DNA of 13,733 nucleotides from Candidatus Aenigmatarchaeota archaeon (GTDB taxonomy: Archaea; Aenigmatarchaeota; Aenigmatarchaeia; GW2011-AR5). Below are positions 3,367 through 13,334 of this stretch, piece by piece. Each line of letters opens with the position of its first letter. The stretch's first letter is position 1. A model generated the notes under the pieces. That model had not been told where the DNA came from, searched no databases, and worked only from the letters and a program-made list of their open reading frames with translations. The stretch lies in NCBI GenBank assembly GCA_016198645.1, contig JACQIE010000044.1, forward strand, positions 1 through 13,733, in the 5' to 3' direction. A program made the position numbers and the translations under genes.

Positions 3367-3447
3367 ATATTCATTGCGAAACAAAAAACGATTCTTCGGG
3401 CATAATTGAATCTTACGTGCTTCTTTCCCTAACTAAACGGTAAATTT

Positions 3448-3468
3448 CAAATCGGCTCAGCCGATTTG
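3448..3468. repeat. Stem-loop 1 of the array
   Basis: The arms CAAATCGGCT (3448-3457) and AGCCGATTTG (3459-3468) are exact reverse complements around a single C, giving a 21-base palindrome. As RNA it would fold with about an 8-9 bp stem. Confidence 0.85.
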
Positions 3469-3469
3469 A

Positions 3470-3489
3470 TTTTGGCGAAAACGCCAAAA
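3470..3489. repeat. Stem-loop 2 of the array
   Basis: The arms TTTTGGCG (3470-3477) and CGCCAAAA (3482-3489) pair perfectly over 8 bp around an AAAA loop. It begins one base after stem-loop 1 ends. Confidence 0.85.
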
Positions 3490-3498
3490 CAAGTACAA

Positions 3499-3524
3499 CA
3501 AAGACTTTTTGTAGAAAGTCTTTG
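3499..3524. repeat. Stem-loop 3 of the array
   Basis: The arms CAAAGACTTT (3499-3508) and AAAGTCTTTG (3515-3524) pair perfectly over 10 bp around a 6-base loop. The hexamer CAAAGA in its left arm recurs in the loop of stem-loop 4. Confidence 0.85.
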
Positions 3525-3528
3525 GGTA

Positions 3529-3552
3529 TACGAGGAACAAAGATTCCTCGTA
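3529..3552. repeat. Stem-loop 4 of the array
   Basis: The arms TACGAGGAA (3529-3537) and TTCCTCGTA (3544-3552) pair perfectly over 9 bp. The loop CAAAGA (3538-3543) is complementary to TCTTTG in the right arm of stem-loop 3. Confidence 0.85.
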
Positions 3553-3722
3553 ATAAAGCCGAAACTAAGCCCCGTCAAAAGTCACCGGCGACGAGTCCTT
3601 ACTAAACGCCCGCCACGAACAACTCGACGCGACGGAAAGCGAAGCAGTCATATAGCATTGTGCGTCTTTCACCAGCGGGTAGTTTACTTGCTTACCGTAA
3701 CAGCACCAGAAAACGCAACACG

Positions 3723-13218: not shown

Positions 13219-13334
13219 CGCCGAGAGCAGGATTTGAACCTGCGCGAGCATAAGCTCACACGCTATCTTTTGCGGCGGCGACTTGCCGCGCCAATTCCAG
13301 GCGTGCGCGTTGGACCAAGCTCCGCCATCTCGGC
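13219..13334 (-). tRNA. tRNA-Ser (GGA) with an anticodon-loop intron
   Basis: The 116-base gene folds as a class II tRNA: acceptor GCCGAGA/TCTCGGC, D stem GCG/CGC, anticodon stem CACGC/GCGTG, long variable arm with GAGC-TTAT-GCTC, and T arm GCAGG-TTCAAAT-CCTGC. The discriminator is G, as expected for serine. Removing a 30-base intron at 13265-13294, after position 37, leaves an 86-base tRNA with the loop CTGGAAA and anticodon GGA (13296-13298). The intron has its own GCGGC-AAGTC-GCCGC hairpin, but the splice junctions do not form an obvious canonical bulge-helix-bulge. A box A on the minus strand (13361-13367) is correctly placed. Confidence 0.88.

What the first reader, a model, noticed from the sequence alone, without database searches (positions are those of the whole stretch)
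3448..3552. Four perfect stem-loops in a row between two convergent genes
Within 105 bases there are four different hairpins with exact arms of 10, 8, 10 and 9 bases, separated by 1, 9 and 4 bases. Each has its own sequence, so this is neither a CRISPR nor a simple repeat. Chance formation of four consecutive perfect stems is very unlikely, and the gap is far longer than other convergent gaps here (0, 7 and 11 bases). A structured noncoding RNA, a multi-stem bidirectional terminator or the end of a mobile element could explain it.
Basis: seen in the sequence. Interest (0 to 1): 0.72.

Follow-up and report, generated by a model that had tools for sequence, protein, structure and literature searches.

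The report
Nested jumping hairpins in an archaeon
The four stem-loops belong to one copy of a small jumping DNA element scattered over an uncultured archaeon's genome, and smaller hairpin units have in turn inserted into that element.

Summary
The four perfect stems are real and are the only perfect stems of 8 bp or more (loops 3-8) in the window. They are not a locus-specific RNA or terminator. They lie in one copy of a dispersed repeat (41 copies judged) in a 655-kb Aenigmarchaeota assembly, extending beyond the finding (about 3413-3687). The base element (147-392 bp in 12 two-ended copies) behaves like a non-autonomous IS200/IS605 element ("PATE"): hairpins near both ends, a TTTAC/T target at the left that is not duplicated, an IS608-like guide whose last base covaries with the target, and a right end shared with tnpA- and tnpB-type genes in relatives. 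Stems 1+2 and stems 3+4 are two optional passengers; other copies show the sites without them. The stem 3+4 unit (TA-hairpin-hairpin-TA) is matched in 12 of 156 genomes of the class, two of them weakly, with different but still paired stems. No judged copy has its midpoint inside a predicted gene, and 4 of 27 lie between convergent genes. Single-strand transposition of the base element is strongly inferred, not shown; no transposase was found in this 70% complete assembly. What moves the double-hairpin unit is unknown.

The parts
3413..3687 (+). Recognisable extent of this copy of the base element with its passengers; the left hairpin and left target are not recognisable here, so the left border is uncertain
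   Evidence: Comparison with other copies; letters checked
3429..3444 (+). Conserved link CTAACTAAACGGTAAA of the base element
   Evidence: Recurs in other copies with up to 3 mismatches
3445..3489 (+). Passenger module 1: stems 1 (3447-3469) and 2 (3470-3489), optional
   Evidence: Seen in 7 places plus 2 degenerate ones; other copies join GGTAAA to CAAGTA directly
3494..3555 (+). Passenger module 2: TA-bounded double-hairpin unit with stems 3 (3499-3524) and 4 (3529-3552), optional
   Evidence: nhmmer and covariance-model matches; sites without it
3605..3608 (+). AACG, position of the right guide just 5' of the right-end hairpin
   Evidence: AACG in 15 of 24 right ends, AACA in 3, not assigned in 6; letters
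3609..3679 (+). Right-end hairpin, outer arms CCCGC 3609-3613 and GCGGG 3675-3679, its loop enlarged by a GACGC...GCGTC segment (3626-3666)
   Evidence: Intact copies read CCCGCCACTTTAGTGGCGGG; letters
3683..3687 (+). Right terminus TTTAC
   Evidence: TTTAC in 11 of 12 two-ended copies; letters

Best explanation
The feature is the interior of a non-autonomous IS200/IS605-derived element (a PATE) that carries two passenger hairpin modules. Base element (strongly inferred): an IS200-type TnpA acting in trans recognises its left and right subterminal hairpins in single-stranded DNA; the guide AAAG/AAAA 5' of the left hairpin pairs with a TTTAC/T target, and the element inserts 3' of it without target duplication. 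Passengers (presence and absence shown; mechanism unknown): stems 1+2 entered between GGTAAA and CAAGTA; stems 3+4 are a TA-bounded double-hairpin unit that entered at a TA and can stack in tandem. No host function is needed to explain the hairpins.
For: Dispersed copies. Two-ended copies with terminal hairpins; all 4 copies with TTTAT on the left still end in TTTAC, so the right TTTAC is not a target duplication. Guide-target covariation over 23 rows: C-G 11, T-A 8, C-A 2, T-G 1, A-A 1; p = 0.0002 for the 21 C/T rows with a recognisable flank, p = 0.0015 with the T-G row put back. IS608 has target TTAC and left guide AAAG (PMC5934647, passages). Right-end hairpin directly after a Y1_Tnp gene in G018 and at the end of a TnpB-type ORF in G021. 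Full copies in same-genus G001. Filled and empty sites for the unit in G000, G006 and G020. No judged copy has its midpoint in a predicted gene (0 of 41).
Against: No Y1_Tnp, TnpB or DDE_3 in the own assembly, which is 70% complete. 2 of 23 rows break the pairing rule as C-A, 1 as T-G, and 1 flank is A. In the window the left hairpin, guide and target cannot be recognised. Left and right pentamers are identical in 5 of the 12 two-ended copies, which alone would also fit a target duplication at a fixed target. The copy-in-copy case (L057) matches the expected continuation only imperfectly. No empty orthologous site in another strain was available.
Confidence: 0.8

Rival explanations
1. The double-hairpin unit (stems 3+4) is a REPIN-like element, moved as folded single-stranded DNA by a Y1-type transposase that reads hairpin shape and a bulged base.
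For: Two hairpins in a conserved frame with changing but paired stems; in 30 listed doublets every hairpin has one unpaired base on exactly one side, the commonest arrangement (14 of 30) being mirror-image; 56 of 60 distinct single frames show the same. Stem 4 loop occurs in both orientations (6 and 3 of 23).
Against: Y1_Tnp is found in 3 of the 12 unit-matching genomes (G009, G014, G020), as short pieces in G009 and interrupted in G020; G006 has 9 model matches and none. No GTAG at the hairpin foot. The stem filter biases the bulge counts.
Confidence: 0.3
2. The double-hairpin unit is a very short TA-targeting MITE moved by an IS630/Tc1-type DDE transposase.
For: Filled sites have TA on both sides where empty ones have one TA, in G000, G006 and G020. 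DDE_3 genes occur in G004 and G020.
Against: DDE_3 found in 2 of the 12 unit-matching genomes; none in G006 at 90% completeness. The one IS630-type gene whose surroundings I read shows no hairpin-unit ends. The TA could be part of the unit.
Confidence: 0.3
3. The four stems form a bidirectional transcription terminator or stabiliser for the two convergent genes.
For: Convergent neighbours; strong folding on both strands; 3 terminator-like sites on the minus strand against 0.8 expected, one at stem 3.
Against: 4 of 27 copies with both neighbours called are in convergent gaps; the stems are optional between copies; the sites found are bacterial-type consensus matches.
Confidence: 0.06
4. A structured noncoding RNA specific to this locus.
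For: Strong folds; compensatory changes in stem 4 between genera.
Against: Dispersed repeat; no Rfam match at gathering threshold; stem 3 broken in about half of the distinct rows. Paired stems are also expected for folded DNA.
Confidence: 0.04

Closest known systems
PATEs of Haloquadratum walsbyi (PMC3119063, passages read)
   Same: Too short to code, near-terminal palindromes, no target duplication, related to IS605-type elements, often hit by other small elements
   Different: Other archaeal lineage; sequences not compared; here the guide-target pairing can be read from copies
IS608 / IS200-IS605 family (PMC5934647 and PMC6006769, passages read)
   Same: Subterminal hairpins, target TTAC, left guide AAAG, insertion 3' of the target
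   Different: No transposase gene in the element or found in the assembly; right terminus TTTAC, not TCAA
SMR-A small mobile repeats (PMC3119063, passages read)
   Same: Small non-coding elements that insert into PATEs
   Different: SMR-A are about 110 bp with inverted terminal repeats and no target duplication; the unit here is 56-66 bp, made of two hairpins and TA-bounded
REPINs (PMC3116915, passages read)
   Same: Two inverted hairpins forming a small dispersed unit
   Different: No GTAG foot, no consistent Y1 partner, stems change freely between genomes
Repetitive or double hairpin elements of mitochondria (PMC2800124, listing and start of abstract only)
   Same: Dispersed hairpin-forming repeats in intergenic DNA
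   Different: Organellar; not compared in sequence

Membership tests
IS200/IS605-derived PATE (base element) | Hairpins near both ends, no transposase gene | tested here: met
   12 two-ended copies of 147-392 bp; DNA fold of L124 shows both hairpins, overall z -2.35 with 4 of 200 shuffles as stable. In the window only the right hairpin is recognisable
IS200/IS605-derived PATE (base element) | Fixed short target at the left, no target duplication | tested here: met
   4 of 4 copies with TTTAT at the left end in TTTAC; 11 of 12 right termini are TTTAC. Not tested on orthologous empty sites
IS200/IS605-derived PATE (base element) | Guide tetranucleotide 5' of the hairpin that matches the target | tested here: met
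   23 rows, covariation p = 0.0002 (21 rows) or 0.0015 (22 rows)
IS200/IS605-derived PATE (base element) | Ends shared with transposase-bearing elements | tested here: met
   Right end after Y1_Tnp (8e-23) in G018 and at a PF07282 ORF (2.9e-18) in G021. Left end of the G018 element not identified
IS200/IS605-derived PATE (base element) | A TnpA that can act in trans in the same genome | tested here: not met
   No PF01797 in G000, assembly 70% complete; fragments in same-genus G001. This is not part of the PATE definition but of its working
REPIN (double-hairpin unit) | Y1 (RAYT) gene in the genome and GTAG/GTGG at the hairpin foot | tested here: not met
   Y1_Tnp in 3 of 12 unit-matching genomes; frame is TACA/TGTA
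SMR-A (double-hairpin unit) | About 110 bp, inverted terminal repeats, inserts into PATE palindromes | tested here: not met
   56-66 bp units; in G000 inserted in the middle of the base element, in G006 inside a palindrome
IS630/Tc1-type MITE (double-hairpin unit) | TA target duplication and a DDE transposase in the genome | tested here: inconclusive
   TA on both sides of filled sites; DDE_3 in 2 of 12 unit-matching genomes
Known Rfam RNA family | Gathering-score match | tested here: not met
   Only a tRNA at 13219-13334 in the window
Transcription terminator | Ends transcripts | not testable with these tools
   No RNA data; consensus scan found 3 sites on the minus strand against 0.8 expected

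The most novel reading that the evidence does not exclude
Aenigmarchaeota carry a so far undescribed class of mobile hairpin pairs: TA-bounded units of two hairpins with a fixed frame (TACA, one bulged base, a stem that changes freely but stays paired, TGTA), which insert at TA, stack in chains inside other elements, and are read by shape as folded DNA by an unknown enzyme.
Probability: 0.35. Interest if true: 0.72.

Novelty: new variant of a known kind. Interest (0 to 1): 0.52.

Why it matters
It gives a natural data set in which target choice by a single-strand transposon can be read from guide-target covariation in an uncultured archaeal lineage. It also shows a second, smaller layer of hairpin elements whose stem sequences change between genomes while the fold and frame stay, which makes recognition by shape testable. 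It warns that striking hairpin clusters in reduced archaeal genomes may be mobile elements rather than RNAs or terminators.

Tried and rejected
Locus-specific noncoding RNA: set aside because the sequence is dispersed and the modules are optional. Convergent terminator: set aside on gene context, although the consensus scan finds 3 sites against 0.8 expected. Phage or viral origin: no blastn match in the phage collection; exact-pattern hits in viral contigs (4) and genome contigs (26) aligned over 18-36 bases only and are taken as chance. Autonomous partner in the same assembly: none found for three families. Integron attC-like sites were considered from memory and not tested. The left end of the G018 tnpA element was not identified, and the one G020 IS630-type gene read shows no matching ends. 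Literature: among the rows listed I saw no paper on such elements in Aenigmarchaeota; only listed rows were seen, and subscription papers and preprints are not held.

Full report
1. Observation. The four stems lie at 3447-3469, 3470-3489, 3499-3524 and 3529-3552 and are the only perfect stems of at least 8 bp with loops 3-8 in the window. Both strands fold far better than shuffles. The neighbours are an ATP-dependent DNA ligase and a HAD-like protein in convergent orientation. The nearest relatives of the ligase that bear an organism name come from Candidatus Aenigmarchaeota.

2. It is a dispersed repeat. Blastn of 3400-3600 against the window's own assembly (655,388 bases, 96 contigs, 70% complete) gives 81 matches, self and both strands of palindromes included; another copy as query gives 73 matches and further places. 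I fetched copies with flanks and compared them. In 14 of 41 judged copies no gene was called on one side before the contig or stretch ended; several copies lie at contig ends, as repeats often do.

3. The base element. A pattern search gave 15 left-right pairs; I dropped three as internal or secondary matches (two of L018, one of L066). The 12 left are 147 to 392 bp long. L124 (186 bp) is the cleanest form without passengers. Left flanks: TTTAC in 5, TTTAT in 4, TTTAA in 1, GTTGC in 1, and TTTAC plus one base in 1. Right termini: TTTAC in 11, TTTAT in 1. All 4 copies with TTTAT at the left end in TTTAC, so the right TTTAC belongs to the element. Left and right pentamers are identical in 5 of 12, which alone would not exclude a duplication. 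The left and right hairpins of L124 form in a DNA fold, with a modest overall z of -2.35.

4. Guide and target. IS608 uses target TTAC and left guide AAAG (PMC5934647, passages). Here the tetranucleotide just 5' of the left hairpin is AAAG, AAAA or GAAA. Over 23 rows (20 from G000, 3 from G001) the last base of the flank and of the guide are C-G 11, T-A 8, C-A 2, T-G 1, A-A 1. My filter dropped the T-G row (L016, an extra base after TTTAC), and the A-A row (L018) is not C or T. The remaining 21 give p = 0.0002; with L016 back, p = 0.0015. A fourth G001 copy (L175, TTTAC with AAAG, seen) was missed by the pattern and agrees. The flank is acquired at each insertion and the 20-base flanks differ, so this reads target choice, although copies of a subfamily share their guide.

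5. Relatives. Blastn with L124 matches 8 of 156 genomes of the class, G000 included: four copies that I read in same-genus G001 at about 190-200 bp, and the right-end hairpin in others. In G018 that hairpin follows a Y1_Tnp gene (8e-23), and in G021 it ends an ORF with a PF07282 domain (2.9e-18) that has an in-frame stop upstream; the upstream piece has no Pfam match. The genes beside it in G014 and G017 were not tested. In G129 it ends a different GC-rich element. Y1_Tnp occurs in 31 of 156 genomes, including fragments in G001, but not in G000. This places the base element with PATEs as described for Haloquadratum (PMC3119063, passages).

6. Passenger 1 (stems 1+2). Seen in the window copy (L001), L002, L003, L008, L012 and twice in L056, with degenerate forms in L057 and L058. 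Other copies join GGTAAA to CAAGTA directly. In L057 a whole element lies directly after the TTTAC that follows such a module; the right flank resembles the expected continuation only imperfectly, and the alignment of the joined flanks breaks down soon after the joint. It looks like one copy inside another but does not prove it.

7. Passenger 2 (stems 3+4). Copies without it read CAAGTA-AAGCCGAA or close to it; copies with it read CAAG-TA-CAAC...CGTAA-TA-AAGCC. Tandem units occur in L002, L003, L012, L013, L052 and L069. In G006 a filled and an empty version of one palindromic repeat lie side by side, differing by a TA-bounded unit; in G020 one frame is filled in 5 and empty in 3 cases, after I set aside two chance matches. 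A covariance model from 27 copies (25 G000, one G006, one G004) matches 12 of 156 genomes at E <= 0.001 per genome: 31 matches in G000, 33 in G020, 9 in G006, some being both strands of one place. The two weakest, G011 and G103, show no clear double hairpin and may be chance. Same-genus G001 and G002 have no match.

8. Structure of the unit. Stem 4 is 96.4% paired with 4 of 9 pairs changed on both sides, all in the G006 and G004 rows. Stem 3 is 86.5% paired with one such pair (in L003), and two of its pairs are broken in 12 and 11 of 25 distinct rows. So stem 4 is kept, while stem 3 decays in many G000 copies. The model was itself built from copies including G006 and G004. Across genomes the frame TACA-stem-GTACA-stem-TGTA recurs with quite different stems. 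In fetched G020 DNA, 35 of 43 distinct TACA-N18-24-TGTA frames hold a hairpin of 6 bp or more, against 30 of 749 for the other 255 tetramer frames, some of these being shifted registers; these stretches were chosen because they hold the unit. In 30 listed doublets (60 hairpin positions, some hairpins in two doublets) each hairpin has one unpaired base on exactly one side. Among 60 distinct single frames with stems of 7 or more, 56 do; the exceptions are one in G000, two in G020 and one in G025. Both lists required a stem, so they do not measure how often frames are paired. The stem 4 loop occurs in both orientations (6 and 3 of 23).

9. Context. I judged 41 copies with hand-set ranges and a codon-usage gene caller of my own. 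The midpoint of none lies inside a predicted gene, though one hand-set range overlaps a gene by 90 bases. Of the 27 with genes on both sides, 20 are in tandem, 4 in convergent and 3 in divergent gaps. Gap lengths and orientation were not compared with the genome-wide background, which I did not have.

10. Verdict. The base element is a member of a known kind in a new host lineage, with direct sequence evidence for guide-target pairing. The double-hairpin passengers resemble SMR-A, REPINs and TA-targeting MITEs but fail or leave open part of each definition. What moves them is not known: G006 has 9 model matches but no Y1_Tnp or DDE_3 match in a 90% complete assembly.

Noticed in passing
window 13219-13334 (-): Rfam finds a tRNA 116 bases long against a 71-position model, which ARAGORN does not report; an intron is likely.
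   Followed up: no
window 3688-3700: Just after the right end the sequence TTGCTTACCGTAA resembles the reverse complement of the element's own ACGGTAAACAA motif, as in C22 (L020), so this copy may sit in the remnant of another.
   Followed up: partly
L014, L052, L054, L126 right ends: In 4 of 41 judged copies the stop codon of the next minus-strand gene overlaps the element's terminal TTTAC by 3 bases (gap -3), as if insertion had preserved the gene's end.
   Followed up: no
L004, L005, L006, L011, L051, L053 against L012, L013, L052: The stem 4 loop is exactly inverted between copies (ATTCAAAGAT and ATCTTTGAAT) while the flanks keep their orientation.
   Followed up: partly
L183-L202 (G020): G020 carries elements with ends TATAGCAAACCAAG...CTTGGTTTGCTATA that hold chains of TACA...TGTA hairpins with many different stems.
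   Followed up: partly
L169-L173 (G129): A GC-rich repeat family in G129 has a different interior but the same type of right end.
   Followed up: no
L177 (G001), around 1016: A base-element copy in G001 begins directly after what looks like a tRNA gene (sequence; not checked with a tRNA finder).
   Followed up: no
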